A DNA stretch of 34,955 nt. Source: a bacterium (lineage in GTDB: Bacteria > Armatimonadota > UBA5829). The notes below the pieces were generated by a model that had not been told where the DNA came from, did not search any database, and saw nothing but the letters and a program-made list of their open reading frames with translations. Shown here piece after piece: positions 1,868 through 21,679 of this stretch; positions within the stretch are counted from its first letter, which is position 1, and the number at the start of each line of letters is the position of its first letter. The stretch lies in the NCBI GenBank assembly GCA_021373255.1, contig JAJFTD010000141.1, forward strand, positions 1-34,955, written 5' to 3'. Both the position numbers and the translations under genes were made by a program.

Positions 1868-1871
1868 ATAA

Positions 1872-3640: not shown

Positions 3641-3641
3641 T

Positions 3642-4157
3642 ATGCGTTTAACACAGGGACTGAATAACTTCAACGTTTACCTCGGAGTAAATCCCGATCC
3701 GCTCTCCGGGGTGAAATCCGTCGATCTGCCCGAGATCGCACATAAAAAGGTTGATCTCGATATGGCTGGCATGGGCGGCGCGGTGTCCATGCCAATACCA
3801 GGTCAAATAGACTCAATGCAGCTCAAGCTCAATGCCAGCGTGCAAACAATTGGCATGCTACGCTCAGCCGCTCCGGTTTCTAACGAAATCACTGTACGAG
3901 CGATCTTCGAGCAAATCGACACCGGCAGCGGAGGGCGTGTGACCGAAGCGCGCACATATGTCTGTAGAGGCTCATGTGGCACAAGCGGCGGCGGAAGCCT
4001 CGAAAGAGGCTCGGAGAACGCAGCGTCACTGGAGTTTGAGCTGTTCTACTATAAGGTGATGGTGGCTGGCTCCGTCGTCACCGAAATCGATAAATTCAAC
4101 AATATCTGCATAATCAACGGCGTCGATTATGCGGCCGAAGTGAGGGATGCGATATGA
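3642..4157 (+). CDS. phage major tail tube protein (FII family)
   Basis: This 171-residue subunit forms the rigid inner tube of the contractile tail. It belongs by pattern to the P2 FII family: it starts MRLTQGLNNFNVYLG, continues with a segment ending DLPEIAHKKVDLDMAGMGG, and has an IPGQIDSMQLKLN strand. The ATG at 3642 is preceded by AGGAG with a 6-base spacer that lies across the sheath stop codon; a TTG at 3624 is in frame but would consume that site. The last four bases overlap the next gene, consistent with coupled translation of tube and chaperone. Confidence 0.88.
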   Translation: MRLTQGLNNFNVYLGVNPDPLSGVKSVDLPEIAHKKVDLDMAGMGGAVSMPIPGQIDSMQLKLNASVQTIGMLRSAAPVSNEITVRAIFEQIDTGSGGRVTEARTYVCRGSCGTSGGGSLERGSENAASLEFELFYYKVMVAGSVVTEIDKFNNICIINGVDYAAEVRDAI

Positions 4158-4477
4158 TCAAAACAGTTACATTACGCGAGCCGGTAACATTCGAGGGCAA
4201 AGAGATAGAAGTTCTCTCCATTGATACCGGTAAGATCAACGGTCGGCTGATGCGCCGAGTTGAAGGTATACTTTCGGGCCAAGGCAGCTTCACAGTGAAT
4301 GGGCAGTTTTCAAATGCATACTGCGCTTACTGTGGCGTGATTGCAGCCGGACATCCACAAGAACTTCTGGATGAACTAAGCGGACCCGACTACATGGAGG
4401 TATCCACGCTGGTGCAGGGTTTTTTGCTCGGTGTGGATATGCCGGAGGAGACTCTTCTCTCCGAGACACCCAAGTAA
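4154..4477 (+). CDS. phage tail assembly chaperone, short form (gpE-like)
   Basis: This 107-residue protein sits between tube and tape measure, the invariant place of the tail assembly chaperone. It starts with TVTLREPVTFEGKEIEVLSID, a pattern typical of phage tail assembly chaperones of this group. Chaperones of this class bind the tape measure during tail assembly and are absent from the mature virion. The in-frame product ends at 4477. A slippery heptamer at 4420-4426 gives access to a second frame that continues to 4593 (see the separate entry), as for the gpE/gpE' pair of P2. Confidence 0.75.
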   Translation: MIKTVTLREPVTFEGKEIEVLSIDTGKINGRLMRRVEGILSGQGSFTVNGQFSNAYCAYCGVIAAGHPQELLDELSGPDYMEVSTLVQGFLLGVDMPEETLLSETPK

Positions 4478-4593
4478 TATGTATTAAGCTCGCGAGAGCA
4501 ACAAATACATCTGTCGAGTTCTACTGGAATCAACCTCTGGAGAGCTTAGGTGATTGGATCGATGCGGCCAATGAGGTATTGAGCGATGCGTAA
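4154..4593 (+). CDS. tail assembly chaperone, long form made by -1 frameshift (gpE+E'-like)
   Basis: Frame 1 is open from 4375 to the TAA at 4591-4593 and encodes a conserved-looking C-terminal segment with no start codon or ribosome-binding site of its own. The heptamer TTTTTTG at 4420-4426 is read in the zero frame as TTT-TTG after a final T, exactly the X-XXY-YYZ register needed for a -1 slip. The product would be 91 zero-frame residues plus 55 shifted residues, 146 in all. It ends with VEFYWNQPLESLGDWIDAAN, which resembles the second-half domain of other tail chaperones. The stop overlaps the tape measure start at 4586. That tail chaperones are made by frameshifting is established in lambda and P2; use of this site is inferred. 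Confidence 0.75.
4420..4426 (+). promoter_or_regulatory. -1 programmed frameshift slippery site
   Basis: TTTTTTG is positioned so that the zero-frame codons are TTT (4421-4423) and TTG (4424-4426). Slipping back one base keeps good pairing on U-rich codons and enters the frame that stays open to 4591. I saw no obvious strong downstream hairpin by eye, so the stimulator, if any, is not identified. Confidence 0.7.
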
Positions 4594-6775: not shown

Positions 6776-6978
6776 TGGCCGACACATATACCACAATCCA
6801 AGGTGATATGTGGGACTCTGTCGCTTATAAACTTTATGGCGATGAGCTCAAAATGACAGAACTTATTGCAGCTAATCCCCAGTATGCGACTACTGTGGTG
6901 TTTTCGGCTGGTGTTGTGCTTAAAGTGCCGCAGATCTCCGCGCTTACATCTGTGATTGTGCCACCATGGAAACAGTAA
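6775..6978 (+). CDS. phage tail protein X (P2 gpX-like, LysM-like)
   Basis: This is a small 67-residue protein with the pattern YTTIQGDMWDSVAYKLYGDE, then LIAANPQYA, then VLKVP. It is the classic tail protein X / LysM-like fold of P2-type phages, found in the tail tip region. It starts in the last base of the tape measure stop codon and overlaps the hub gene by 13 bases, so it sits inside a tightly coupled run. Length and position match the family. Confidence 0.85.
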   Translation: MADTYTTIQGDMWDSVAYKLYGDELKMTELIAANPQYATTVVFSAGVVLKVPQISALTSVIVPPWKQ

Positions 6979-7970
6979 ACGCACCGCGCACGGTCGTTAA
7001 TATCATATACAACGACCACAATATAACTACTAGCCTTGCGCCATATCTGATCAGCTTTGAGTATACCGATTTTGCCAGCGACCAGGTAGATGATATCTCT
7101 ATCAGCATCAACGATCCAGATGGGCGATGGTGTAATCGCGATTATCCAACGGCATCCACTCGGATCACGGCGAGCATCATCGATATCGGTGAAGCCAGCC
7201 AAAGCGAACTAAAATGCGGCTCATTTATTGTCGACTCCCCGAGCTATGCAGCGCCGGGAGTAATGACGATCAAAGCGACCAGCGCAAGTATTGTCACCAG
7301 CCTACGCAAGCAAGCTGAGGCGAAGCGTTGGGAGCATATAACTCTCAAGCAGCTCGCCCAGCAGCTCGCGGCGAAGCATGGCACGACAATCATCTTTGAA
7401 AGTGCAGACACTCCCCAGATAAGCAAAGCCGATCAGAAAGACGAGTCAGATCTGGCATTCCTTCTGCGGGTATGCAAGCGCGAGGGTTACGCGCTTAAAA
7501 CAGAATCAAACCGCCTGGTGATAGTGAAACGTTCGGAGTGGGATGCGCGGACCGCAAATCTCACACTCTACCGGGATGGCGGCATTGTAAGCGATTGGTC
7601 GTTCGAGGAGGATCGCGATGCCGTGTATTCATCTTGCATCGTTAGATACAAACCTCCAAAGGCAAAGAAAATGCTGGAGGCGGTCTATGCTCCGGAGAAT
7701 GCACCTGAAAATGGTCAAGTCCTCATTGTCCGGGAACATGTAGGTAGTCAGGCCGAGGCTGAGCGGGTCGCCAAGGCTAGATATGAGGCTGCAAACAGGG
7801 GCAGGTTCAAGGGAAATCTAATATGTGTCGGAAGCACAACTTTGTGTAGCGGTATGTCAATCAAATTGTCAGGCTGGGGAGTCTATGACGGCCGTTATGC
7901 AATTGATGAAGCGCGGCACTCGGTCAGTCCGGGATATACAACAACACTTGCTGTGGTAAAGCTATTATGA
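6966..7970 (+). CDS. phage late control protein D-like baseplate hub
   Basis: This 334-residue homologue of P2 gpD (gp27-like hub) forms the trimeric ring linking the tail tube to the spike. Visible family traits are the N-terminal strand pair (ISFEYTDFASDQVDDISISINDPDGRW), the central FLLRVCKREGYALK segment with a following RLVIVKRSEW strand, and a C-terminal SGMSIKLSGWGVYDGRYAIDEARHSVS block. The ATG at 6966 lies within the end of gene X. The next gene, the spike, overlaps by four bases, as expected of partners in one complex. Confidence 0.85.
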   Translation: METVNAPRTVVNIIYNDHNITTSLAPYLISFEYTDFASDQVDDISISINDPDGRWCNRDYPTASTRITASIIDIGEASQSELKCGSFIVDSPSYAAPGVMTIKATSASIVTSLRKQAEAKRWEHITLKQLAQQLAAKHGTTIIFESADTPQISKADQKDESDLAFLLRVCKREGYALKTESNRLVIVKRSEWDARTANLTLYRDGGIVSDWSFEEDRDAVYSSCIVRYKPPKAKKMLEAVYAPENAPENGQVLIVREHVGSQAEAERVAKARYEAANRGRFKGNLICVGSTTLCSGMSIKLSGWGVYDGRYAIDEARHSVSPGYTTTLAVVKLL

Positions 7971-8401
7971 GTGGAGAGACATGGAACCTGTTGAGACATG
8001 GCGAGGTTGTTGCTGTAGACACAACCACTTGCTGTGTGAAGGTGCATTTTGAGGAGTTAAATGATACCTCGGACTGGCTACCCGTGCTGCAGATTGGCGG
8101 CGGTGGCTTGGCGGCGTATTGGCTTCCGAGTATCGGTGCTGTGGTAGTGGCGGTGTTCTTTTCTGACGCCACGGAAGAAGGCGTGGTTTTAGGTTCGTTA
8201 TATACAGACGAAGACAATATTTCAGATGCCGGCAGCGGCGTCTACTATGTTAAGTTTCCGGATGGATCGAGCGTAAAGTGGGATAATGGTGCTCTTGAGA
8301 TTATCGCCAATTCGGTGGATATAACGGGCGGAACTACCATCACCGGCAACGTGATTGTTCATGGAACGGTGACGGCGCAACATTTCATCCAGGAGGGATA
8401 A
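7967..8401 (+). CDS. phage baseplate assembly protein V / tail spike
   Basis: This 144-residue protein is similar to P2 gpV. It has an N-terminal OB-type barrel (GEVVAVDTTTCCVKVHFEEL, then ASIG-like PSIGAVVVAVFFSDATEEGVVLGSLY), followed by a repetitive beta-helical C terminus (ITGGTTITGNVIVHGTVTAQHFIQEG) that would form the membrane-piercing needle. The phrase on volume change (GVVLGSLY) is typical of the family. It starts inside the hub stop codon. The needle is short compared with P2. Confidence 0.85.
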   Translation: MSGETWNLLRHGEVVAVDTTTCCVKVHFEELNDTSDWLPVLQIGGGGLAAYWLPSIGAVVVAVFFSDATEEGVVLGSLYTDEDNISDAGSGVYYVKFPDGSSVKWDNGALEIIANSVDITGGTTITGNVIVHGTVTAQHFIQEG

Positions 8402-8869
8402 ATGATAGTCGGTTCATACGGGGGAATCGTTTTTGAAACCTCCAGTGATATGCTGTTCAGTTTCGATTCCCTCCACTCCGAGGCTTCCGCAAGAATTGAA
8501 ACTACCGATATTATCGGCAGGCGACCAGCGTTAAAGTTCCTGGGACCGGGCGGCGAGACCGTGACATTCAACATGCGGCTCTGCTCGACTTACGTAGATA
8601 ACCCGCTAATTGAGTATAACCGATTGCGGGACATGCGTGACAGTGGCAAGGCCGCAACTCTGGTGATTGGATCCAAACCATTCCCCAGTGATCGCGCAGC
8701 CGTGAAATGGGTGATCGAATCTCTTTCGGCTGATCTGAACCACTTCAGTCGACATGGAGAGCCGAAGCTGATCGAGATTCAGGTAACACTCAAGGAGTAT
8801 TCCAGATCAGAGACACAGAGCAACATCTATTCAGGCTTGCCAGCATCGATTAGTTCAACTACCGCATAG
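8402..8869 (+). CDS. P2 gpU-like phage tail protein
   Basis: This is a 155-residue protein that opens with IVGSYGGIVFETSS and continues with GRRPALKFLGPGGETVTFNMRL, matching the P2 gpU family (phage tail protein U). The family is a tail assembly protein. The ATG follows the spike stop codon with no gap and is preceded by GGAGG. Its location between spike V and wedge W differs from P2, where U lies next to T and D, but this order is frequent in Gram-positive myophages. Confidence 0.78.
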   Translation: MIVGSYGGIVFETSSDMLFSFDSLHSEASARIETTDIIGRRPALKFLGPGGETVTFNMRLCSTYVDNPLIEYNRLRDMRDSGKAATLVIGSKPFPSDRAAVKWVIESLSADLNHFSRHGEPKLIEIQVTLKEYSRSETQSNIYSGLPASISSTTA

Positions 8870-8876
8870 GTGAAAC

Positions 8877-9158
8877 ATGTATAATCTCAATCCAGATTTA
8901 ACTACAGAGATAGATCAAAACGTTGAGCTGATTACAGCGACCCCGCGTGGGAGTGTTCCACTATCAAGAACCCTGGGCCTGGACGCTAGTTTGCTCGATT
9001 TGTCGGGAACGCGCGGCCAGGCTCTGTATACGGCCGCTGTCTATGATTCGCTACCCGAGCAAGAACCGCGCATACATGTAACTGATGTGTCATTTGCCGA
9101 AGGCAATAATCAGGGCGAAGTGAAACCAATAGTGAGGTATGAGGTGGTATCGGCATGA
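8877..9158 (+). CDS. phage baseplate wedge protein W (gp25-like)
   Basis: This 93-residue protein is of the gpW/T4 gp25 baseplate family. The signature is the helix VELITATPRGSVPLSRTLGLD, in which an Ile-x-Thr-x-Pro-Arg-Gly motif precedes a short Pro-Leu segment, and a C-terminal strand (VKPIVRYEVV). gp25-type proteins anchor the first sheath ring on the baseplate. The start has an AGGTG motif 4 bases upstream. It overlaps the J gene by four bases. Confidence 0.82.
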   Translation: MYNLNPDLTTEIDQNVELITATPRGSVPLSRTLGLDASLLDLSGTRGQALYTAAVYDSLPEQEPRIHVTDVSFAEGNNQGEVKPIVRYEVVSA

Positions 9159-10255
9159 AGTTCGTTGAGGACAACGTTGAAACCATACAGGCGAAGAACA
9201 TCACCCGTGCCGAGGCGGAACTCGGGCGCAAGTTATACCCTGGCGACCAGGAGCGTGTGCGGATCGGTCTCACTTCGTATATACAGTCACTGGTAGGTGC
9301 GGCCGTAAATTTCTCGGTTAATCAATGTAGACTGCGGGATGCAGAGGGTGAATCCCTCGATGCTCTCGCGGAGCTTCATGGCATTACCAGGAAACCCGCT
9401 GAACACGCTCGCACTACCCTGCGCTTTTCGCTGGCCGCACCGAGGCAGTCCGTGACCAGTATTCCAGAGGGGACGCGAGCTACGGTTATCGGCTCTGGTA
9501 TAGCTTTTGCCAGCATCGAATCCGCTGAGATCGCTATTGGAGACACGTATGTCGATGTTATAGCCGAGGCCGATATCGCGGGGCCTTCCGCAAACGGATA
9601 CCTGGCTGGCGAAATAGATCAACTTGTGGACATTGTTTCATTCATAGCCGAGGTTAGTAACCAGACCCCCAGTGCCGATGGTTCAGATCCGGAGACTGAT
9701 GAGCATTTCCGAGAACGCATTCGCGAAGCTCCGGAGGCCTACAGCACCGCCGGCAGTGAGGGTGCCTATAAGGCCATGGTTCGGGCCAGCCGAGCTGATG
9801 CAGACGGTATCAGTATACATAGTCCTGCGCCGCGCGAACTGGACATATATGTCACCCTCACCAATGGAGTGATTCCAGCGTCTGAGACATTGGCAGAGAT
9901 CGCGGACTATCTGAATGACGACTACCGTAGACCTATGAGTGATGTCGTGAGAATCAATGCGCCGACGCCGGTCCAATATACAGTCGCGTTTTCGTATTGG
10001 ATCAATCGGACTGACCAGGCGCGGGTGTCGGAGATTCAGGCAGCCATCGACGCGGCCGTTATCGATTACATCCTTTGGCAACGAAGCGAGATAGGCAGGG
10101 ATGTGAACCCATCCGAGCTGACAAGACGCCTTATGAATGCCGGCGCTCTACGCGTGGCCATTACGGCTCCCGTATATGCCGCTCTGGATTATTCGCAGCT
10201 TGCCGTGATAAATGGCGCTCCGGCTATCACATACGAAGGGCTGAGTGATCAGTAA
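9155..10255 (+). CDS. phage baseplate assembly protein J
   Basis: This 366-residue protein belongs to the baseplate J family (T4 gp6-like wedge). Family features seen are the N-terminal helical part with GESLDALAELHGITRKPAEHA, the beta sandwich IPEGTRATVIGSGIAFAS, the conserved PETDEHFRERIREAPEAYSTAGS helix (residues about 175-200), and the C-terminal DVNPSELTRRLMNAGA segment. It dimerises in the wedge and meets gpW and gpI, which flank it here with overlapping ends. Confidence 0.9.
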   Translation: MKFVEDNVETIQAKNITRAEAELGRKLYPGDQERVRIGLTSYIQSLVGAAVNFSVNQCRLRDAEGESLDALAELHGITRKPAEHARTTLRFSLAAPRQSVTSIPEGTRATVIGSGIAFASIESAEIAIGDTYVDVIAEADIAGPSANGYLAGEIDQLVDIVSFIAEVSNQTPSADGSDPETDEHFRERIREAPEAYSTAGSEGAYKAMVRASRADADGISIHSPAPRELDIYVTLTNGVIPASETLAEIADYLNDDYRRPMSDVVRINAPTPVQYTVAFSYWINRTDQARVSEIQAAIDAAVIDYILWQRSEIGRDVNPSELTRRLMNAGALRVAITAPVYAALDYSQLAVINGAPAITYEGLSDQ

Positions 10256-10827
10256 TGCCGAATATGGAGCTTGCCAATCTGGAGTCACGCAGGCTATTGC
10301 CGCAGAACCTGTCGACCGATGAGGTGCTGTCCGCGATTCTCAACGCTACAGACACATACTGGCAAGAGCTTGCTGTAGCTATACCAACCCTCGCGATACT
10401 CGCCACAATCGATCAGCAGCCGGAAAATGTTATAGATGATCTTGCGTGGCAGTTTCATGTTGATTACTGGAATGCAGGATGGGACTTGGCCACCAAACGC
10501 ACTGCAGTAAAAAACTCATTCAGATTGCACAAACTAGCGGGCACGCGAGGTGCAGTCAATGACCTGATACGGATAATATGGGGCGATGGTGCTATTGTCA
10601 GCGAATGGTGGCAGCACGGTGGAGAACCCGGTACATTCGATGTTACACTGACCAACGGAATCAGCCAAGCTGCAGTTAATGAATTTGTGGCGTCGATTCG
10701 CATGGTGAAACGTGCCACGGATCATATAAACGTTTCTATACCTACCATAGTACCAGACTCCGGCCTGCACATTGCGCCGGTGGTCCATATCATCACACCA
10801 ATGCGGTTTATTGTGCCGGAGGAATAA
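10255..10827 (+). CDS. phage tail protein I (baseplate wedge, fibre attachment)
   Basis: This 190-residue gpI homologue (TIGR01634-type pattern) has LLPQNLSTDEVLSAI at the N terminus, ENVIDDLAWQFHVDYWNAGW in the middle and KRTAVKNSFRLHKLAGTRGA thereafter. gpI sits at the baseplate edge and holds the tail fibres. It overlaps J by one base (TAATG) and the fibre gene by one base at its end, so J, I and fibre are translationally coupled. Confidence 0.88.
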   Translation: MPNMELANLESRRLLPQNLSTDEVLSAILNATDTYWQELAVAIPTLAILATIDQQPENVIDDLAWQFHVDYWNAGWDLATKRTAVKNSFRLHKLAGTRGAVNDLIRIIWGDGAIVSEWWQHGGEPGTFDVTLTNGISQAAVNEFVASIRMVKRATDHINVSIPTIVPDSGLHIAPVVHIITPMRFIVPEE

Positions 10828-12395
10828 TGAGCACTTACATTACTATCTTGACAACTGCCGGGAAACAGCTCCTACAAGATGTGCAAAACGGCACAGGGAA
10901 GCTCGATTATACGCTGTTCAAGTGCGGCTCGGGCGAGATCGGCGCGGGCGATCCGACAGCACTTAACGATCTTATTAGTACGCAGCAGGAATTCAGCGCC
11001 ATTGATATCAAGCGCGATGAGAACAATATACCATTTGTATGGTGCTGGTTCAGTAACGCCGGTGTTATTACTGGCTATTACCGTATGGAGATGGGGCTAT
11101 TCGGTAGGGAGCATGGCGGTAATACAGATACGTTGATCGCCTATTTCTACGCCGAGACGCAGGCCAACGCTGACTATATCCCCGTTCCCGATGGTGGCAT
11201 AGCAGTCAGCAGCCCGGTAGGGTTCCATGTAGCTGCGTCTGCCGATCTCGAATTGGCTGTTACGGTGGACGCCTCACTTTACGGGCTGAGTTTGGACCGA
11301 TGGGCCGCTCACCTCGCCGGAGCTGGTGGCGCTGATCAGCACCCTAATGCTACGGCGGCTATACCGGGATTAATGCCAGCTGCTGACAAAGCCAAGCTCG
11401 ATGGACACATCAACACTATTACACCCACTAAGGGCACATCCATTCACGGCAGTGCCACAACCACATCGTCTGGTTTTATGAGTGCGGTTGATAAGGCGAA
11501 CGTAGATGCCCACATAAACACCACCACACCTACTAAAGGTACAACTATCCATAGCAGTGCTACAACCACATCATCCGGCTTTATGGGTTCATCTGACAAG
11601 ATGAAGCTCGATGGCATAGCCGCCGGTGCGGAAGTCAATCAGAATGTATTCTCCAGCGTAAAAGTTGGCACTACAACCATAGCAGCAGACGCCAAAACCG
11701 ATGTGCTAGAACTCGCCGGTAGCACATATATAACTCTGACTCCGGATGCCGCGAACGATAAGGTTGTTATTGAAGGGCAGAACTTGACCCCGTCTTCGCA
11801 TATTGGCAGTAATGGCAATGCTCATGCTGTTGCTACACAAGCCGCAAACGGGTTTATGAGTGCAGCTGATAAAACCAAACTCGATGGCCTCAATTATGTG
11901 AATCTATCAACTTATCAGAATATCTATGGCGGCAAGACTTTCTATGATCCGATCTGCGCTTATGACGACAGTGCACCGCTCACTGGATTGCAATTCAAGA
12001 TAACTGCAGAGGGTGGATATGCGGTCAGATTGATCAATAAAACCGGCGCGGCCAGCATTAAAGGAATGGCCGTAAAAATTGCATCTACGATGGATGGTGC
12101 ATTTGCAGTCCATAATGTAGCCTATGACTGCGTAGCAGGTTTTGTGTATGAATCCGGTATTGCAGATGGATCTGCAACTTGGGTGGTTGTGGCAGGTATT
12201 GCTAAGGCTCTGATAAAAGCGGGTGAGGCATTGATCTCTGGTGACTGGCTCGAAGCATTAAGTAATGGCCGAATGCAGAAATATACGAACCCTAACCAAG
12301 CATACACATCCCTTGGGCCAATTGTCTTGCAGGCCTGCAGTAATACCGGAGCAGAGCAGTTGGTAAGCGTGCTTATGGCTCATAATGTCGGATAA
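10827..12395 (+). CDS. phage tail fibre protein with internal repeats
   Basis: This 522-residue protein is probably the receptor-binding protein. Residues 1-150 match the phage tail-collar fibre N-terminal domain (DUF3751 type), starting MSTYITILTTAGKQLLQD. The shaft contains four related 'G-[FL]-M-x(3)-DK-x-K/N-[LV]-D-G/A' motifs, two of them within a 35-residue tandem repeat (residues about 194-263). The C-terminal part from about 364 onward looks like the DUF2190 capsid-cement/decoration domain (AVRLINKTGAASIKGMAVKI), an unusual tip. No separate fibre chaperone gene follows; the next feature is a terminator. Confidence 0.82.
   Translation: MSTYITILTTAGKQLLQDVQNGTGKLDYTLFKCGSGEIGAGDPTALNDLISTQQEFSAIDIKRDENNIPFVWCWFSNAGVITGYYRMEMGLFGREHGGNTDTLIAYFYAETQANADYIPVPDGGIAVSSPVGFHVAASADLELAVTVDASLYGLSLDRWAAHLAGAGGADQHPNATAAIPGLMPAADKAKLDGHINTITPTKGTSIHGSATTTSSGFMSAVDKANVDAHINTTTPTKGTTIHSSATTTSSGFMGSSDKMKLDGIAAGAEVNQNVFSSVKVGTTTIAADAKTDVLELAGSTYITLTPDAANDKVVIEGQNLTPSSHIGSNGNAHAVATQAANGFMSAADKTKLDGLNYVNLSTYQNIYGGKTFYDPICAYDDSAPLTGLQFKITAEGGYAVRLINKTGAASIKGMAVKIASTMDGAFAVHNVAYDCVAGFVYESGIADGSATWVVVAGIAKALIKAGEALISGDWLEALSNGRMQKYTNPNQAYTSLGPIVLQACSNTGAEQLVSVLMAHNVG
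11406..11615 (+). repeat. two tandem 105-bp repeats in the tail fibre gene
   Basis: Copies run 11406-11510 and 11511-11615. Both encode a 35-residue unit beginning His-Ile-Asn-Thr, with shared phrases TPTKGT, SATTTSSGFM and DK. They differ at many third codon positions, so the duplication is old and kept for protein structure. Confidence 0.85.
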
Positions 12396-13728: not shown

Positions 13729-14388
13729 CTAATAATGGTGACGAAGATCAATCCAGAGGTGACGTAGGTGAAAGCGGGTTACAGGAAACATACGCTCAAA
13801 AATATTGTCCAGCCGACTCACTCCATTTAAACACCAACCGTCCATTGAGAGCTTAATTACAGGGATCTTGTGGCTGCTGGCGCGCGTGTTGACCTGCGCC
13901 AGCACTCTCTCTGGCTCCGCATTCTGCAGGTAGCCAATCATCGCACCGGAGCAGCAGTCACGCCCATAACTATGACTGGGATCCAGAAACCGCTTAACAC
14001 CGTCATCTACGTAGTCATTGCTAAAGTGGCTATCTCCAAGGCGTTTGCACTCAACATTATAATAGACACTCAACTGTGCCACGTCATCAATAAGCTGGTG
14101 CTGAAAGTCAGGGCGTTTGAACACGGCTGAGACGCGCACTGGATCTGACACGCGCGGCTGAGTTGGCGCATTGAACACAGGTATCATGTCGAAACCACGA
14201 CCGACCTGCCTGAGCCTAAGGTTTGCAGTCTCTAGACACTGAGAAAGAGTCCTACTAATGTCGTCCTCGTCAGTCACAGTTTTTAGATCGCGATTCTGAA
14301 GTAATTCTATCGCTGCGAAAAACAGCTCAAGCAGTCTGCCCTCATACTTCGTCCATAGCCGCGTTCCAATTAGCTGTGGCCGCCTCAT
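13729..14388 (-). CDS. PD-(D/E)XK nuclease-like protein, probable restriction partner
   Basis: This 219-residue protein carries a clear PD-(D/E)XK arrangement: Pro93-Asp94, then 18 residues, then Glu113-Cys-Lys115 (VECKRLG). After it comes a YVDDGVKRFLD helix and a SYGRDCCSGAMIGYLQN segment, which resemble the helix-strand end of restriction-type nuclease folds. An N-terminal helical part (residues 15-60) may serve recognition or contact. It starts 4 bases inside the methyltransferase stop region (14385-14388 overlap), so the two genes are coupled and likely act together. I could not match it to a named family; the nuclease assignment rests on the motif and context. Confidence 0.7.
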   Translation of the reverse strand: MRRPQLIGTRLWTKYEGRLLELFFAAIELLQNRDLKTVTDEDDISRTLSQCLETANLRLRQVGRGFDMIPVFNAPTQPRVSDPVRVSAVFKRPDFQHQLIDDVAQLSVYYNVECKRLGDSHFSNDYVDDGVKRFLDPSHSYGRDCCSGAMIGYLQNAEPERVLAQVNTRASSHKIPVIKLSMDGWCLNGVSRLDNIFERMFPVTRFHLRHLWIDLRHHY

Positions 14389-17300
14389 AATTGCACATCC
14401 TCAAGCAGCATCGCTTGTGCTAGCGTTGCCTCAGCATCTTCCCGCGCCGCACTTCGCGTCCACAGTCGTCTCTCATCTCGCTTGATTATGACAATATCTG
14501 TTGCAGAAACCACTCGCAAGATACCATCGATCAAGACATTGCTGGCGCCATGGGTCTGCAGGCTGCTGATGGCGAGATCTTGTAGAAGCTGCTGCCATTT
14601 CTCTTCGTCTGAATCTTCGGGCGGCGGCAGGGGTTCTGAACGGAATTGACTGGAAAAGATAACTGCCAGCATTGAGGACCCTCGGTGCGGCTGCACAATA
14701 CGCCAACAAAACTCCTCGTCTGGTTCTAGTTGATAACTCCAAGACGATAGAAACGATTGTAGATACCCTTCGATTGGTATTTGCTCCGCGCAGCTGCTGT
14801 GTAGGTCATCAATGACCCCGTGGCGCTTTGATAGACCATCTAAAGAAACTGGTTTAACCGCTGATCCTCGCCATTTATTGAAGAAGAGGTCCAGCTCATA
14901 GTCAATCATATCGCACACTCGTTCCCGCTCTGGAACTGTCAGTTGATATAAGTCTAGGATAGCCTCATCCAGTTCCAGTTTCTTGTGATGGATCTTGCGA
15001 GAGTCATAAATATCCCTCGGATCAAGGGAAGATAGCTCATCTACCAGACGAACGATGCTTGTACGTGTGTATTCATCTTCGGGCAATCGTATCGGTATGT
15101 CCAATATTGAATGCTTGTGGATCGCATTGTGCCACGGTCCCCAAGAACCAACTGTCATCCAGAGGTAATATCTGGCCAAAGAAGACCAGCAGATGCCAAC
15201 AATGATCTTGGCCACATCAGGGAAGTCATTATTCAAGCGTATGCCGAATACCGAATGTTTGAAACAGTAAGGCTCGTTATCAAGCCGGATCTGCAGTTCC
15301 TTCTGCACGCCACGTCGTACAACAAGGCGCAGACCCTGATAAACGCTCTTGTTTCCCAATCTGGAGACATTCTTCGGAACATCGACAAGAGAGGCTTTTG
15401 GAAGTGGTCCATATCTCCAAACATGTTTGGTAGGTAGCACCTTGTATTCGGCAATATCCTTCGATGACACGGAAGAAGAGCTCTTCCGCTCATCCATGAA
15501 ACCGACCCCGCTATCGATGTATATGGACTTCCCGTCTATATCAAGCTGACAGATGTTGGGGTGTGCTCTCAATGCACGAACTAGCGCCCAGTCCATATGG
15601 CCACCCCACCAATAGATCTTCCATATTTCGTCGTGCGCCAAGGCGTCAGCCTGAGACACCGACTTCAAATCAGCACGACTGAGGACTACTGACCGAAGCT
15701 TTGCCGCCATAGACGTCTTCTTGGCTGACCAGTATTCAAAGCGATGGTTCGGATTCCATGTGGACAGATCAAATACAACGCAAGCAAACGGAGCCGCCGC
15801 TCCCGCGAAATAGGTATCTGCGAGATGCGCAAAGTTGGTAAGCTTGACTAACTTGGCTCGTGTGAGCCACTGCTCCCTAAATTGGCGACTCTTGTTCTCG
15901 TGCTTGAAAAACACACCAGTCGATACTAATAACCCAGCCCGTCCACCAGGAGCAAGAAGATCCATTGCCCGGTGGATAAAGAGTTGCGAGTACTCATCGT
16001 CTCCAGCCGTATAGCCACGGTCTTCACACCAGTCTTTAGCCACTTGCAGGGCTTTCTTGCCCTCCTTGTCATTTGATCGAGGACTGCCCCACGGTGGATT
16101 ACCAATGACAACGTCGAAACATCCGTCGCCAAACCCGTGACTCAATTCAGAGCTATTGGCTCCCTCTATATCAAAGGCATTGGAAACAAGAAGAGTATCA
16201 AAATACTGATCAGGGTCACGGATCACGTGTTCACTCTTGAGAAGATTCGGTAGCCGCGGGCTGTGTCGGATATCTTTCGGCTCCTGACAGTCAAGGAGGG
16301 CTAAATACAGACTGAATGCTGCAACGCGCACAGCCTCTGGATTGATGTCTATGCCTGCTAGTTGGTCGCGCATAATCTCGCGAAGTTCATTCCTATTCAG
16401 CTCTCTCTCAAGCCCTCGCATTTTATAACGCACAAGCCGCCTATATGCTTTGACCAAGAAGATACCGGATCCACATGATGGATCAATAATACGTGGCTTG
16501 CGTTGGAGAACGCTTTCATCTAGCACCTGAGACAACACATACTCTACCAGAGCATCTGGAGTGTAATGTGTACCATTGTCGGCCTCGTCTTCTTTGGCCT
16601 TATAGAACTCCTCGTAGATGCTGCTGATGAGCTCTATCGGGATCACATCAAACTTATAGGCATGGAAGAATAGCCTCAGTTGATTGTCCGCAGCCCCCAC
16701 TAGGAATCGTTGTAGCATGCGAAGGTGTTTTGACGTAACAACATCATTCTCGTCTGCGCTGGACGGGAACGCATCACCATTAAAATCCTTTGCAATCTGA
16801 GCGAAGAGTGCATACGTGAACTCCTTGCTGTTCAGTACTCGCGGATAGAGAAGCCTGTGCATCTCCTCATCCATTAGATTGAACGGCAATGGAGCTTCTA
16901 GAATGGCCTGCCATTCAGGGTGTCCATGGGCTACATTCAGAAAGTATTCTTCATCTATGATACCTCGATCTTCCAGATACCGTATGAAGATCGAGCGGCC
17001 TAACAATGCATGCACGTACGAAACGTCTAGGCTTTGCTGTAGCTGTTCTCGGATGGTACGCAAGTCGCGGATGAGCGCCTGATCGGCCCTATCGCAACTC
17101 TTCGGAAGACGATCCTCATTAAGTAGTCTTCCAGTCTCCAGTTCCTCTGCCCGAAACCGTGAAAGACAACGCTGCACGTCAGCGGCCGCCTTAACGCCTC
17201 CTAGCACGCGGTTGTGACTGTCGATCGACTCTCCTGGCCCAACTGGAGGCCTAGAAAGGTCCAGTACACGCAGATCACCCGGCATAGCTAGAAACAGGAA

Positions 17301-17585
17301 TCTTGGCCGTGACATACACCAGATCCTGTTGACAAACTGACGTAACTCATCTGGATCTGCGTTGTAGTGCTTAGCGAAAACGACAACGGGATTATCACCG
17401 ACAAAGAAGATCTTCTCCGCGCTCACGGTGTTCGCAAGTGAAAGCCACTCTCCTCTGTTTAGCCAGTTTTCCGGATCAGACGCACCTGGCGAGGAGACTG
17501 CGTCAAGAAGCGAGCCCTTCTCGAAATGCAGATCCTTGTAGGCTGCTTCGAGCATTGTCTGCGGGTCTTGGAGTACATACGGCAT
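14385..17585 (-). CDS. Eco57I-type N6-adenine DNA methyltransferase with recognition domain
   Basis: This 1066-residue protein transfers a methyl group from SAM to adenine in a DNA site. Motifs in order are HYTP at 340-343 (motif X region), DPSCGSGIF at 368-376 (motif I), GIDINP at 411-416 and NPPWG at 496-500 (motif IV, typical of N6-adenine enzymes). Residues 1-330 form a helical N-terminal region (IFIRYLEDRGII near 199-210) seen in Eco57I/type IIG proteins; I see no nuclease motif there. Residues about 600-950 resemble a target recognition domain. GGAGG lies 9 bases before the ATG. It lies between a MerR-like regulator and a separate PD-(D/E)XK protein, suggesting a split restriction-modification system rather than a one-chain type IIG enzyme. 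Confidence 0.88.
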   Translation of the reverse strand: MPYVLQDPQTMLEAAYKDLHFEKGSLLDAVSSPGASDPENWLNRGEWLSLANTVSAEKIFFVGDNPVVVFAKHYNADPDELRQFVNRIWCMSRPRFLFLAMPGDLRVLDLSRPPVGPGESIDSHNRVLGGVKAAADVQRCLSRFRAEELETGRLLNEDRLPKSCDRADQALIRDLRTIREQLQQSLDVSYVHALLGRSIFIRYLEDRGIIDEEYFLNVAHGHPEWQAILEAPLPFNLMDEEMHRLLYPRVLNSKEFTYALFAQIAKDFNGDAFPSSADENDVVTSKHLRMLQRFLVGAADNQLRLFFHAYKFDVIPIELISSIYEEFYKAKEDEADNGTHYTPDALVEYVLSQVLDESVLQRKPRIIDPSCGSGIFLVKAYRRLVRYKMRGLERELNRNELREIMRDQLAGIDINPEAVRVAAFSLYLALLDCQEPKDIRHSPRLPNLLKSEHVIRDPDQYFDTLLVSNAFDIEGANSSELSHGFGDGCFDVVIGNPPWGSPRSNDKEGKKALQVAKDWCEDRGYTAGDDEYSQLFIHRAMDLLAPGGRAGLLVSTGVFFKHENKSRQFREQWLTRAKLVKLTNFAHLADTYFAGAAAPFACVVFDLSTWNPNHRFEYWSAKKTSMAAKLRSVVLSRADLKSVSQADALAHDEIWKIYWWGGHMDWALVRALRAHPNICQLDIDGKSIYIDSGVGFMDERKSSSSVSSKDIAEYKVLPTKHVWRYGPLPKASLVDVPKNVSRLGNKSVYQGLRLVVRRGVQKELQIRLDNEPYCFKHSVFGIRLNNDFPDVAKIIVGICWSSLARYYLWMTVGSWGPWHNAIHKHSILDIPIRLPEDEYTRTSIVRLVDELSSLDPRDIYDSRKIHHKKLELDEAILDLYQLTVPERERVCDMIDYELDLFFNKWRGSAVKPVSLDGLSKRHGVIDDLHSSCAEQIPIEGYLQSFLSSWSYQLEPDEEFCWRIVQPHRGSSMLAVIFSSQFRSEPLPPPEDSDEEKWQQLLQDLAISSLQTHGASNVLIDGILRVVSATDIVIIKRDERRLWTRSAAREDAEATLAQAMLLEDVQL

Positions 17586-17616
17586 AATTGTCTTCCTCCA
17601 CGATCAGGCTTGAGGC

Positions 17617-18054
17617 TTACGCAGCCTTTCCGGCAACCAAGTCTTGTCCGAAGCTCTCCAGCAAAGCCGACCAAGTCGCCCCCACAGGGAACAACATGAG
17701 GCGCTGGCCGGGCTGTTGAAGAGCACTCACCATAGAGCTTAACACCTCATCACCATCGCGCCAAGCTATATCGTTTCCGCTGACAACCAGCACAAGACCA
17801 ACTAGTGGCCGTTCTTGGCCCGAGAGTCCTCGGAGGTTTTCAACGGCCTTACGAATCTCTTGCGTTGAGAATCCTGCATTCCTCAGGTTAATGACTGCCA
17901 GGGTCTCCATCAAACCAGATCCACCGATAAAATGCCCATGACGCCCACGCCCCAGCCGTTCCGGTGTTACAAGCCCTAACTTCACCCAACTAATAAGTGT
18001 TGTCACGGGCAGACCAAGGCGCCTACCTAGTTCTCTTGCAGTACATCCAGTCAC
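17617..18054 (-). CDS. MerR-like transcriptional regulator of the methyltransferase cassette
   Basis: This is a regulator with an N-terminal winged helix of MerR type (TARELGRRLGLPVTTLISWVKLGLV, then a GRGRHGHFIGG wing and NAGFSTQEIRKAVENLR). The remaining 80 residues do not match a metal-binding or drug-binding sensor that I know. It lies 31 bases upstream of the methyltransferase on the same strand, like the controller genes of restriction-modification systems. The start is uncertain: the frame is open to a GTG at 18111 and an ATG at 18084, but a near-consensus promoter lies at 18064-18092 and implies the GTG at 18054, with an almost leaderless mRNA. Confidence 0.7.
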   Translation of the reverse strand: MTGCTARELGRRLGLPVTTLISWVKLGLVTPERLGRGRHGHFIGGSGLMETLAVINLRNAGFSTQEIRKAVENLRGLSGQERPLVGLVLVVSGNDIAWRDGDEVLSSMVSALQQPGQRLMLFPVGATWSALLESFGQDLVAGKAA

Positions 18055-18063
18055 AATGTCGTT

Positions 18064-18092
18064 ATTGTACAATTGGTTGCACATTATGTCAA
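18064..18092 (-). promoter_or_regulatory. sigma70-type promoter for the MerR/methyltransferase/nuclease cassette
   Basis: Read on the minus strand, TTGACA (18087-18092), a 17-base spacer and TACAAT (18064-18069) match the consensus at 11 of 12 positions. Expected transcription start is near 18057, three bases from a GTG at 18054. The -10 overlaps a perfect 10-bp palindrome ATTGTACAAT (18064-18073), a possible operator for the regulator itself. Confidence 0.65.
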
Positions 18093-18122
18093 CGCCACCA
18101 TGATGTCTCACCAGATTCTCAC

Positions 18123-18153: not shown

Positions 18154-18167
18154 CGAACATTCGTTCG
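18154..18167 (+). promoter_or_regulatory. LexA-type (SOS) operator
   Basis: CGAACATTCGTTCG is a perfect palindrome with the GAAC-N4-GTTC core of the Gram-positive LexA box (consensus CGAAC-N4-GTTCG). It lies just after the -10 element, over the expected transcription start, where a bound repressor would block initiation of the Dam-type gene. No lexA or phage repressor is visible in the window. Confidence 0.75.
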
Positions 18168-18183
18168 GCAACAAGGAGGCATT

Positions 18184-19032
18184 ATGTCTACCAGACTCAG
18201 ATCCCCTATTCAGTGGTTTGGCGGCAAACAAGCGATGGCCGCGAAGCTACTTCCATTATTTCCCGATCATCGCACTTATGTTGAGCCGTTCGGCGGTGGT
18301 GGCTCACTACTCATCAGTAAGGAGCCGAGCCCGGTAGAGGTATATAATGACTTGAACGCGGACCTGGTGAACTTCTTTCGCGTATTGCGAGATCCAATCC
18401 TGTTCCCCAATTTCTACAATCGCGCCTGGCTGAGCCCATTTAGCCGGGAGGAATATCTATTCTGCAGGGACCACCTAAACGAGGATCCTAGTCCGGCGGA
18501 ACGCGCCAGGCGTTTCTTCGTGTTGGCGCGATTCAGCTTTAGCGGCCTGGTGGGGAAGTCGTTCGGGATCAACATAGCATCATCGAGCGGGGGAATGGTT
18601 GAGAAAGTCTCAGCCTACCGCAACATACTCTGCGTGCTCCCGCTGATCGCCGAGCGATTATCTCGAGCGGAGATAGAGTGTCGGGATTTCCGACAGATCA
18701 TAAAGATTTACGACCGGCCCGAGACGTTCTTCTATTTGGACCCGCCCTATGTACCATCCACCCGGAAGTGCGGCGGGTATGCGCACGAGATGACAGAGCA
18801 GGACCACCAGGAGCTCGTGGAGCTGCTGCGCGGGATCCAAGGCAAAGCGATGTTATCAGGATATCACAACGAGCTTTATGATAGCTTGGGTTGGCGGCGG
18901 ATGGAATGGCAGGTCAACTGCAGTGCAGTCGGCCGGACACGTGCTACGGGATTGCAAGGCGTTGGGGTTATGGGTGAAGCCCAGAAGAGGACCGAGTGTA
19001 TATGGATGAATTATGAAATTCCGAGTAATTGA
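18184..19032 (+). CDS. Dam-type (D12 class) N6-adenine DNA methyltransferase
   Basis: This 282-residue enzyme has the alpha-class order of motifs: WFGGK at 11-15 (motif X), VEPFGGGGS at 33-41 (motif I, SAM binding) and DPPY at 186-189 (motif IV, catalysis). It would methylate adenine, often in GATC, although the target cannot be read from sequence. AAGGAGG is 4 bases upstream of the ATG. It is transcribed away from the restriction-like cassette from a LexA-type controlled promoter, so it is probably an orphan phage methylase made during induction, which may protect replicating phage DNA or alter expression. Confidence 0.9.
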   Translation: MSTRLRSPIQWFGGKQAMAAKLLPLFPDHRTYVEPFGGGGSLLISKEPSPVEVYNDLNADLVNFFRVLRDPILFPNFYNRAWLSPFSREEYLFCRDHLNEDPSPAERARRFFVLARFSFSGLVGKSFGINIASSSGGMVEKVSAYRNILCVLPLIAERLSRAEIECRDFRQIIKIYDRPETFFYLDPPYVPSTRKCGGYAHEMTEQDHQELVELLRGIQGKAMLSGYHNELYDSLGWRRMEWQVNCSAVGRTRATGLQGVGVMGEAQKRTECIWMNYEIPSN

Positions 19033-19290: not shown

Positions 19291-19320
19291 GTCGTTTGGG
19301 TTCGAATCCCAGGCTACTCA
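19291..19320 (+). other. tRNA 3'-end-like fragment 1
   Basis: A T-arm with loop TTCGAAT closed by TTGGG/CCCAG is followed by a 7-base acceptor-like arm GCTACTC and a discriminator A. No 5' half is present. The preceding bases (CTCAT, GGTCG) recall an initiator tRNA 3' half with a deletion, but this is weak. Confidence 0.45.
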
Positions 19321-19472: not shown

Positions 19473-19500
19473 TTCGGGAGTTCGAATCTCGCCGCCCCTA
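19473..19500 (+). other. tRNA-Trp-like 3' end, candidate right attachment site
   Basis: The sequence GGGAGTTCGAATCTCGC followed by CGCCCCTA closely matches the 3' end of bacterial tRNA-Trp, whose acceptor arm begins AGGGGCG and ends CGCCCCT. Only the 3' end is present, in plus orientation, directly after the phage accessory genes. That is the expected form of attR when a phage has integrated in a plus-strand tRNA-Trp gene left of the window. Confidence 0.55.
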
Positions 19501-19535
19501 GCCTGCCATTATTCCCATTCTGACGAGAGAACATG

Positions 19536-19544
19536 TGGTATACT
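19536..19544 (+). promoter_or_regulatory. extended -10 promoter for the Fe-S nuclease gene
   Basis: TGG followed by TATACT forms an extended -10 element (TGn-TATAAT type). No good -35 is visible at 17 bases; extended -10 promoters can do without one. It lies about 40 bases before the chosen ATG. Confidence 0.45.
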
Positions 19545-19582
19545 CATACCGACTATGCACACAGTTCTTCTGGAGGATGGGA

Positions 19583-20488
19583 ATGGGAGATCTTGAAAAC
19601 CGGTTAGTTTGGTCGCATTCCAGGCAGGCTACTTTTGACTCGTGCAAGCGCAAATACTACTACCACTACTACGGCTCTTGGGGAGGATGGAACTCGGATG
19701 CCCCAGGGCTTATTCGACAAGCATACCTGCTCAAGAATCTCGACGGATTAGATGCGTATGTGGGAAGCCTTGTGCATAAGCATATTAGTAGAGTCTGTGC
19801 CAACCTCTCTTACGGCAAAGCGCATAGCCTTGATCCCAACACCTTAGCGAAAGAGTTGGACCGGGCATTCATAGAGTCTACAGATGACGTTTGGTATAGA
19901 GACCCGAAGAGGCGCACCCGATTCTTTGAAGATCACTATAACGGCGGGATATCTGCTGAACTGAAAGAGAGCAAGAAGCAAAAAGCTGTAGCTTGCATTA
20001 AAGCATTCTTGGGCAGTCGCATGTTTGCACAGCTCCAACAATATGCAACGCAAATACATTGGCTGTGGATTGATCCTCCGAGGTTTTCGCCAAACAGTGA
20101 GTTCAGCCTGGGCGATTGTCATGCATTCGGGAAACTCGACCTTGCATTTAAGTCTGCCGGAAAAGTCTACTTAATTGATTTCAAGACGGGCAAGCAAGAT
20201 GCATCCGAACAAGAGCAGATTGGAGTCTACGCACTATTTGCTAAAGATAAATGGGCTTGCGAAACTGACGCAATCACCTGTGGCATGGTCGCCCTTTATC
20301 CCGAATATAGTGAAAGACGCTATGCGGTCACTGACCAATCATTAGCGGAGGTAGAAGAACGCATCAAGATCGGTTATTCAGAGATGGTAACTCTACATGA
20401 AGCCGGACTCAATTACCAGGATTCCTCATTTTCACCCAGCAAAAGAAAGTGCGAATGGTGCAACTTCAAAGAGATATGTAAAACATAA
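19583..20488 (+). CDS. RecB/Cas4-like PD-(D/E)XK nuclease with a probable Fe-S cluster
   Basis: This 301-residue protein has the RecB-family nuclease layout: N-terminal SHSRQATFDSCKRKYYYHYYG with Cys21, His65 in VGSLVHKH, Asp186 in GKLDLAF, Asp199 and Lys201 in LIDFKTGK, and the QxxxY motif at 212-216. Three cysteines at 290, 293 and 299 (CEWCNFKEIC) complete a four-cysteine set with Cys21, as in AddB and Cas4, where it holds a 4Fe-4S cluster. The ATG at 19583 has GGAGG 6 bases upstream. There is no helicase or Cas gene beside it, so it is an orphan whose role in DNA ends or defence is unknown. Terminator-like sequence follows. Confidence 0.82.
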   Translation: MGDLENRLVWSHSRQATFDSCKRKYYYHYYGSWGGWNSDAPGLIRQAYLLKNLDGLDAYVGSLVHKHISRVCANLSYGKAHSLDPNTLAKELDRAFIESTDDVWYRDPKRRTRFFEDHYNGGISAELKESKKQKAVACIKAFLGSRMFAQLQQYATQIHWLWIDPPRFSPNSEFSLGDCHAFGKLDLAFKSAGKVYLIDFKTGKQDASEQEQIGVYALFAKDKWACETDAITCGMVALYPEYSERRYAVTDQSLAEVEERIKIGYSEMVTLHEAGLNYQDSSFSPSKRKCEWCNFKEICKT

Positions 20489-20560: not shown

Positions 20561-20650
20561 GTAGCATCTCGTCGACACCAGCTATACGGTTGGTAATCCA
20601 GTGCTAATCAGAAACTTCTGCGCAATATTCTAAGGATGGTGGCGATCAAA

Positions 20651-21679
20651 ATGAGACTTTCTACTTTTATCGTTTATGTTAGTGTTCTCGTCTGCCTAGC
20701 GAAACTACCAGCATCTGCTTCAAATTACTCCATAGAGCAGATTTATACTGTTCACGGTTCTTCGTCTATTGCGCTTGACATTAGTAACAACGGCCAGATT
20801 ATTGGTTCATCGGGTACAGGTTCTGGCAACACTGGCGCATTTTTTTGGAGCCGCGAGACTGGCTATGTCGATATATGGTCGTCGACGGGTGTTTCGTTTG
20901 ATCCTGTGGCAATTAATGATGCTGGTCAAATTATAGGCAGAATAACAAGTGAATGGACAACCCCTGCTGCACTATGGTATTCGGAAAATGGCGCGATTAG
21001 TCCTATGGATTTACACGACGTATATAGCATTAACTCGGCTGGAATAGTACTAGGTGTTTCCGACACCGGTAATACGGTGTTGCTGGACAACAATAAACAT
21101 AGCACCACCGAACTCACAGGCGCTTTCGAGGGAATAATCTCTTGCGGTAATCTAAACAATTCGGGACAGGCAGTCATTACGACAATATGGACGGACAGTG
21201 GTCCTGGCTGGGCTATTGCTGGTTGCACGGCATACAGATGGGATTCTGCCAACGGCATAGCGGTCCAGTTGGATTCACCATTCGATGAGAATAATGCCTA
21301 TGTCAATGCGATAAACGATCATGGCTATGCGGTCGGCATATCCGGAAACCACGCCGTGATGTGGAACCCCGACGGGTCGGTTGTGGACCTTGGCGAGGGC
21401 AGTGCCTGGGATATTAATAACCTTGGGCAGATAGTTGGAAGTAGTCGTGAATACGGCGCAGTGCTGTGGCAGTCTGACGGCACGATTGTTAACCTGCCCG
21501 ACACTACAGACAGTGATGATTCCTGGGCTTTGGCAATCAACGATGCAGGGTGGATTGTTGGTCAGGACGGCGCGAACGCCGTCCTCTGGCAACCAGTTCC
21601 CGAACCATCCGCCTTTGCAGCGTTAGCATGCGGCTTGGTTGGGATTTTCACCCGCACAAGAAAGCGTCGAAGCTCATAA
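20651..21679 (+). CDS. secreted HAF-repeat protein with a PEP-CTERM sorting signal
   Basis: This 342-residue exported protein has an N-terminal signal peptide (RLSTFIVYVSVLVCLAKLPASA). Its body is a series of about 40-50-residue beta repeats with recurring phrases such as AINDAGQIIG, SINSAGIVLG, AINDHGYAVG, DINNLGQIVG and AINDAGWIVGQ, each followed by an 'A.LW' strand. That is the HAF repeat. The C terminus has VPEPSAFAALACGLVGIF then basic residues, the PEP-CTERM signal cut by an exosortase; no exosortase is in the window. I chose the ATG at 20651, with GGTGG 8 bases upstream, over the ATG at 20636, which has no spacer. Probably a surface or biofilm protein; function unknown. Confidence 0.85.
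   Translation: MRLSTFIVYVSVLVCLAKLPASASNYSIEQIYTVHGSSSIALDISNNGQIIGSSGTGSGNTGAFFWSRETGYVDIWSSTGVSFDPVAINDAGQIIGRITSEWTTPAALWYSENGAISPMDLHDVYSINSAGIVLGVSDTGNTVLLDNNKHSTTELTGAFEGIISCGNLNNSGQAVITTIWTDSGPGWAIAGCTAYRWDSANGIAVQLDSPFDENNAYVNAINDHGYAVGISGNHAVMWNPDGSVVDLGEGSAWDINNLGQIVGSSREYGAVLWQSDGTIVNLPDTTDSDDSWALAINDAGWIVGQDGANAVLWQPVPEPSAFAALACGLVGIFTRTRKRRSS

What the first reader, a model, noticed from the sequence alone, without database searches (positions are those of the whole stretch)
13729..18054. Three-gene minus-strand cassette: MerR-like regulator, large adenine methyltransferase, small PD-(D/E)XK nuclease
Within a prophage accessory region there is one operon of regulator, Eco57I-type methyltransferase (1066 aa, with DPSCGSGIF and NPPWG) and a 219-aa protein with PD-x18-ECK. 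The methyltransferase and nuclease genes overlap by four bases. The methyltransferase shows no N-terminal nuclease, unlike single-chain type IIG enzymes, so cleavage may be assigned to the separate small protein. A MerR-type regulator, in place of the more usual XRE-type controller, is unusual. This may be a split restriction-modification or phage-exclusion system not yet described.
Basis: partly seen in the sequence, partly recalled or inferred. Interest (0 to 1): 0.85.

Follow-up and report, generated by a model that had tools for sequence, protein, structure and literature searches.

The report
Two-part restriction system in a prophage
A resident virus in a bacterial genome carries a DNA-marking enzyme and a separate small DNA-cutting enzyme that occur side by side across bacteria and archaea, which suggests that a widespread defence system now filed as a one-piece enzyme is really a two-piece one with an unrecognised cutter.

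Summary
On the minus strand lie a MerR-type HTH gene, a 1066-aa m6A methyltransferase (MTase) and a 219-aa protein with an intact E-D-ExK nuclease motif. The last two overlap by ATGA. The conserved unit is the last two genes. Of 106 loci with this MTase family, from many bacterial phyla and two archaeal lineages, 99 have the nuclease next to it; five others end at a contig edge and two viral copies truly lack it. In reverse, all 11 nuclease genes found in 291 genomes follow the MTase. AlphaFold gives a restriction-endonuclease-like fold for the small protein (pLDDT 90). Its motif residues are 99-100% conserved, yet no Pfam, NCBIfam or PADLOC model describes it. PADLOC labels the MTase 'type IIG', but its N-terminal domain has no conserved catalytic residues. 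In close relatives the target-recognition region is replaced while the nuclease stays up to 90% identical, so specificity probably sits in the MTase. Best reading: a restriction-modification system with a type-IIG-like modification/specificity chain and a detached nuclease. The regulator is optional and varies in type. It is a new variant of a known kind. Cleavage and phage defence are untested.

The parts
17617..18111 (-). MerR-type HTH regulator (164 aa from GTG 18111, or 145 aa from GTG 18054); optional, variable part of the cassette
   Evidence: Pfam MerR_1 28.4 bits; other regulator types or none in relatives
14385..17585 (-). 1066-aa modification/specificity protein: gamma-class m6A DNA methyltransferase
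   Evidence: Eco57I, N6_Mtase; AlphaFold pLDDT 88.9, pTM 0.91; VIA Z 26 to CamA, 25 to BrxX
17193..17564 (-). MTase N-terminal alpha/beta domain, residues 8-131, without conserved D/E/K triad
   Evidence: model secondary structure; column statistics over 107 MTases; no Pfam or PDB sequence match
16464..16484 (-). MTase motif I, DPSCGSG (res 368-374), AdoMet binding
   Evidence: D368, G372, S373, G374 invariant over 107 MTases
16089..16100 (-). MTase motif IV, NPPW (res 496-499), catalysis
   Evidence: N496 and P498 invariant over 107 MTases
15081..15638 (-). Target-recognition region (res ~650-835), replaced between close relatives
   Evidence: TaqI_C weak match 737-832; block replacement with the nuclease retained
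14388..14873 (-). MTase C-terminal alpha/beta domain (res ~905-1066), also a free-standing protein in cyanophages
   Evidence: conserved in the family; free-standing in Microcystis phages and 61 IMG/VR contigs
13729..14388 (-). 219-aa PD-(D/E)XK nuclease subunit; E41, D94, E113, K115
   Evidence: motif 99-100% conserved in 100 sequences; AlphaFold pLDDT 89.8; nearest folds OkrAI, BglII, BamHI, BstYI
14385..14388 (-). ATGA overlap of the MTase stop and nuclease start (probable translational coupling)
   Evidence: sequence; gap -4 or within a few nt in most relatives
18064..18092 (-). Promoter-like TTGACA-17-TACAAT in front of the cassette
   Evidence: consensus scan, 11 of 12 positions; the scan as a whole is close to chance

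Best explanation
A two-subunit restriction-modification (R-M) system. The 1066-aa protein recognises a DNA site through its target-recognition region and methylates an adenine there. The 219-aa PD-(D/E)XK protein is the restriction subunit, directed by the MTase to DNA whose site is unmethylated, where it cuts. The MTase's N- and/or C-terminal domains are the probable docking surface for the nuclease. A promoter-proximal regulator (here MerR-type, elsewhere other HTH types or none) tunes expression. Carried by a prophage, it would protect the lysogen against other phages or plasmids. Shown: gene order, near-obligate pairing, intact catalytic residues in both subunits, restriction-nuclease-like predicted fold, purifying selection, exchange of the recognition region with the nuclease retained. 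Inferred: cleavage, methylation dependence, physical complex, defence phenotype, role of the regulator.
For: Pairing: 99 of 106 family MTases have the nuclease immediately downstream on the same strand; five exceptions end at a contig edge and two (L108, L111) are viral copies without it. Generic MTases in the same scan (under 150 bits) never have it. Reverse search: 11 of 11 nuclease genes in 291 genomes sit behind the MTase. Nuclease: E41/D94/E113/K115 at 99-100%, fold model with restriction enzymes as best matches, dN/dS 0.06-0.41 in six close pairs. MTase: gamma-class motifs invariant; best folds CamA, BrxX, LlaGI, DrdV, MmeI, BsaXI. No catalytic triad in the N-domain. Specificity in the MTase: L042/L050 are 80-100% identical over most of the MTase but 37-64% across residues 601-800, with the nuclease 90% identical; the same pattern appears in L041/L052, L034/L039 and L039/L063 (nuclease 68-71%). 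In 32 disjoint pairs nuclease identity tracks the N, catalytic and C domains (rho 0.81-0.88) better than the recognition region (0.62). Neighbours of some relatives match Gabija, Septu, PARIS, SoFic and Dol models, or are annotated TIR/SIR2 or Shedu genes.
Against: No biochemistry. Partial correlations over all close pairs do not separate the recognition region from the N domain, so coupling of nuclease and specificity is not excluded in general. Fold matches of the nuclease are moderate (Z 7.5 at best; Foldseek E > 0.1), so homology beyond the superfamily is not shown. Complex formation could not be modelled. Two viral copies lack the nuclease, so the MTase may work alone in some settings.
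Confidence: 0.72

Rival explanations
1. Orthodox type II R-M: the small protein is an independent, sequence-specific restriction endonuclease that recognises the same site on its own; the MTase merely protects.
For: Separate R and M genes; best fold matches are orthodox enzymes of the same size (OkrAI, BglII, BamHI, BstYI).
Against: The MTase recognition region is replaced while the nuclease stays up to 90% identical, which would uncouple an independent enzyme from its protector. All R proteins belong to one homologous family tied to one MTase family across many phyla, unlike the usually unrelated R proteins of orthodox systems (general knowledge).
Confidence: 0.13
2. The nuclease is a cell-suicide or general DNA-damage effector that the MTase holds in check while host DNA is methylated, rather than a site-directed restriction subunit.
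For: Six upstream regulators in relatives carry an S24 (LexA/CI-type) peptidase, suggesting damage- or phage-sensing control.
Against: Near-universal tight gene coupling and the restriction-nuclease-like fold fit a stoichiometric R subunit; many relatives have no regulator at all.
Confidence: 0.1
3. The MTase is mainly an epigenetic or self-protection enzyme of the phage (like orphan phage MTases) and the nuclease has a phage function such as host-DNA breakdown.
For: Location in a prophage; two viral copies lack the nuclease.
Against: Most relatives found are on genome contigs and plasmids; catalytic residues and pairing are kept in hosts from many phyla.
Confidence: 0.05

Closest known systems
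Type IIG / type IIL R-M enzymes (MmeI, DrdV, BpuSI; PADLOC PDLC03623 'REase_MTase_IIG')
   Same: One chain with helical region, gamma-class m6A MTase and target-recognition region; PDLC03623 spans almost the full length of a relative (L007); fold matches to DrdV, MmeI, BpuSI.
   Different: No conserved nuclease residues in the N-terminal domain; the cleavage motif is on a separate protein encoded by the next gene; extra C-terminal domain.
BREX PglX/BrxX methyltransferase
   Same: Related MTase fold (Z 25.4, residues 166-907), probably one-strand modification of an asymmetric site.
   Different: No PglZ, BrxC, BrxA or BrxB genes in the cassette; a two-gene unit with a dedicated nuclease; far below the NCBIfam cut-off (63.5 of 400 bits).
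CamA (Clostridioides difficile orphan m6A MTase)
   Same: Best fold match of the catalytic and recognition part (Z 26.6, residues 313-882).
   Different: CamA is a solitary, shorter MTase; here a nuclease gene is fixed next to it.
MADS (MAD1/MAD2)
   Same: Small HTH gene plus N6 MTase; weak mad1 (20 bits) and mad2 (59 bits) matches.
   Different: The MAD2 match is far below the NCBIfam cut-off (54 of 720 bits) and no further mad genes are in the cassette.
Type IIB BcgI/BsaXI
   Same: Related MTase chain (BsaXI Z 23); two-subunit enzymes.
   Different: There the second subunit is specificity (S) and the nuclease is fused to M; here the second subunit is the nuclease and specificity is fused to M.

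Membership tests
Type IIG R-M enzyme | Nuclease and MTase in one polypeptide | tested here: not met
   No conserved D/E/K triad in residues 1-165 over 107 MTases; E-D-ExK is on the separate 219-aa protein
Type IIG R-M enzyme | m6A MTase and target recognition in one chain | tested here: met
   Motifs I and IV invariant; fold match to CamA, DrdV, MmeI through residue ~880; exchangeable recognition region
Orthodox type II R-M (separate R and M) | Separate, adjacent R and M genes | tested here: met
Orthodox type II R-M (separate R and M) | R recognises and cuts the site independently of M | tested here: inconclusive
   Recognition-region exchange with nuclease retained argues against it; needs enzyme assay
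PD-(D/E)XK nuclease superfamily | E-D-ExK active-site signature | tested here: met
   E41 100%, D94 99%, E113 100%, K115 100% in 100 sequences
PD-(D/E)XK nuclease superfamily | alpha-beta restriction-endonuclease core fold | tested here: met
   AlphaFold pLDDT 89.8; restriction enzymes dominate the best rows (Z 7.5-5.2) with three Rep15 rows among them; Foldseek alone gave nothing significant
BREX | PglZ and BrxC partners | tested here: not met
   Cassette 13729-18111 holds only three genes; PglX equivalog cut-offs missed
MADS | MAD2-type MTase within an eight-gene locus | tested here: not met
   54 bits against a cut-off of 720; three genes only
Type IIB (BcgI-like) | Separate S subunit | tested here: not met
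   No S gene in the cassette; the second subunit has a nuclease motif and fold
MerR regulators | MerR winged-HTH domain above curated cut-off | tested here: met
   MerR_1 28.4 bits against a cut-off of 21.6

The most novel reading that the evidence does not exclude
A widespread class of R-M systems in which a type-IIG-like modification/specificity chain recruits a detached nuclease through its C-terminal domain, and in which freshwater cyanophages carry a free-standing copy of that C-terminal domain as a decoy that blocks recruitment (an anti-restriction protein).
Probability: 0.15. Interest if true: 0.78.

Novelty: new variant of a known kind. Interest (0 to 1): 0.6.

Why it matters
If right, a set of MTases that PADLOC calls complete one-protein type IIG systems are really half of a two-protein system, and their cutter belongs to a protein family that Pfam, NCBIfam and PADLOC do not model. 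The detached nuclease gives a natural test of how a methyltransferase licenses cleavage, with recognition region, methylation and cutting separable by gene. The interchangeable regulators (MerR, XRE, LexA-type) offer a comparison of how one toxic enzyme pair is controlled in different hosts.

Tried and rejected
tblastn of the 219-aa protein against phage and plasmid records found nothing, because most relatives are under 25% identical; plasmid relatives were found through the MTase and gene position. Single-protein scans of IMG/VR found nothing. The idea that the N-terminal domain is a remnant nuclease could not be settled: the topology in the model (a-b-a-b-b-a-b-b) fits, and the DrdV alignment starts at residue 29, but sequence profiles gave nothing. 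The neighbouring D12 MTase (18184-19032) was considered as a partner for the second strand and set aside: only 2 of 106 relatives have a D12 gene there, and a second copy in the same genome, near the end of the short contig C126, shows none of the cassette in the 122 bases held before it. Sibling prophages in G015 and G017 show no homologue of the cassette, but their contigs do not give a clean empty site. The papers search found no description of the pair; the library is open-access only and REBASE could not be searched, so prior notice there is possible. Cyanobacterial genomes could not be searched for a host copy of the cyanophage domain.

Full report
Observation. The window is a whole contig (G000:C68) with a partial contractile-tail prophage: neck, sheath, tape measure, baseplate and tail fibre at 744-12395 and an Amidase_3 endolysin ending at 13726. 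All coordinates, motifs and the ATGA overlap are correct.

What is conserved. The 219-aa protein matches no Pfam, NCBIfam or PADLOC model. Scans of 82 members found only two weak PDDEXK_9 hits and no NCBIfam hit that fits. Relatives were collected through the MTase: plasmid records, 80 loci from bacterial and archaeal genomes and 45 viral contigs. Of 106 loci with a family MTase (over 400 bits), 99 have a homologue of the small protein next to it on the same strand, mostly with a 1-4 nt overlap or a gap of a few bases. L025, L056, L070, L085 and L104 end at a contig edge (L025 shows the start of the nuclease). L108 and L111, both viral, truly lack it. Generic MTases below 150 bits in the same scan never have it. 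Searching 291 genomes of the window's phylum with the nuclease profile alone gave 11 hits, and all 11 lie directly behind the MTase. The pairing is therefore close to obligate in both directions. Record titles include Chloroflexota, Bacillota, Bacteroidota, Cyanobacteria, Planctomycetota, Actinomycetota, several Pseudomonadota groups, Methanophagales and Methanobrevibacter.

The first gene is not part of the core. Upstream ORFs in relatives include MerR-type (window plus three of 42 scanned), XRE/HTH_3, six with an S24 LexA/CI-type peptidase domain, and MazE-like or MarR-like singletons. L011, L019 and L021 carry a small protein that looks like a ribbon-helix-helix regulator by eye. Many loci, including the close relatives L023-L025, have no such gene.

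The nuclease. Across 100 sequences E41 is 100%, D94 99%, E113 100%, K115 100%, Y126 98% and H210 99% conserved. AlphaFold gives pLDDT 89.8 and pTM 0.88, with E41 at the start of a helix and D94 and E113-x-K115 at neighbouring strands. Foldseek alone gave no significant match. The structural re-alignment ranks OkrAI, BglII, BamHI, BstYI, McrC, SwaI, PspGI, PaqCI and EcoRV high (Z 7.5 to 4.4). These Z values are moderate and three Rep15 rows fall among them, but the dominance of restriction enzymes together with the signature makes the PD-(D/E)XK assignment secure in my view.

The modification protein. AlphaFold gives pLDDT 88.9 and pTM 0.91. Residues 313-882 match CamA (Z 26.6), 166-907 match BrxX (25.4), and LlaGI, BsaXI, DrdV, MmeI and BpuSI follow. 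PADLOC PDLC03623 'REase_MTase_IIG' covers residues 36-1018 of the 1035-aa relative in L007, so this family is what PADLOC calls type IIG. Its N-terminal domain (8-131) has an alpha/beta topology compatible with a decayed nuclease, but over 107 MTases no acidic or lysine column is conserved enough for catalysis. Whether it is a pseudo-nuclease is open.

Where specificity lies. Close pairs show block replacement of the recognition region while everything else, including the nuclease, stays similar. L042/L050: 80-100% identity over most of the MTase, 37-64% over residues 601-800, nuclease 90%. L041/L052, L034/L039 and L039/L063: mostly 15-53% over residues 651-900, nuclease 68-71%. The converse also occurs (L041/L063: recognition region 67%, nuclease 41%). 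In 32 disjoint pairs nuclease identity follows the catalytic, N and C domains (rho 0.88, 0.81, 0.81) more than the recognition region (0.62), but partial correlations on all close pairs do not separate them. The simplest reading is that the MTase chooses the site for both activities and the nuclease follows.

C-terminal domain. Residues 905-1066 form a separate module. It is a gene of its own in plasmid pRSB223 (L020) and apparently split in L018, and it is free-standing in Microcystis phages (33-36% identical to the window) and in 61 IMG/VR contigs, with 45 intact ORFs at a median dN/dS of 0.42. It may be the nuclease dock and the phage copies may be decoys; this is inference.

Context. Of 129 flanking ORFs from 34 loci, several match Gabija, Septu, PARIS (AriA), SoFic and Dol models; plasmid neighbours include TIR/SIR2 and Shedu genes. 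No background rate was computed. Placement behind the endolysin on the opposite strand is typical of lysogenic-conversion genes (general knowledge).

Verdict. A two-subunit R-M system with a type-IIG-like modification/specificity chain and a detached, unmodelled PD-(D/E)XK nuclease: a new variant of a known kind. It is a finding about a family, of which the window is one member.

Noticed in passing
18184-19032 (+) and G000:C126:153-992: A D12/Dam-type MTase divergent from the cassette has a perfect CGAAC-N4-GTTCG dyad (18154-18167) 30 nt before its ATG; an 85% identical second copy on contig C126 has the same dyad at the same distance. It resembles a Gram-positive-type LexA box, but genome-wide counts (7) do not exceed the control (12).
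   Followed up: partly
19297-19320 and 19475-19498: Two stretches match the 3' parts of tRNA-Lys (88%) and tRNA-Pro (96%) genes elsewhere in the genome, likely att scars at the prophage right end.
   Followed up: partly
19535-20488 (+): A second, unrelated PD-(D/E)XK protein (PDDEXK_1, exonuclease-like) lies outside the cassette, just right of the tRNA-like scars.
   Followed up: no
20636-21679 (+): Secreted-type protein with a C-terminal PEP-CTERM-like motif next to the prophage end (19.2 bits, just under the cut-off of 20.7).
   Followed up: no
L009:4947-5483 and L173-L233: Free-standing homologue of the MTase C-terminal domain, conserved in Microcystis phages and 61 viral contigs; a candidate anti-restriction protein.
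   Followed up: partly
L108:5560-8394, L111:5500-8577: Two viral copies of the MTase without the nuclease; L108 also lacks a normal C-terminal domain and L111 has a D12 MTase directly upstream.
   Followed up: no
L020 (plasmid pRSB223) 3941-7635: The MTase is naturally split: the C-terminal domain is a separate gene between MTase and nuclease.
   Followed up: partly
L042:3029-5482, L050:2974-5481, L048:2214-4841, L051:1406-4204: A large same-strand ORF (about 820-930 aa) upstream of the MTase in several loci; not identified.
   Followed up: no
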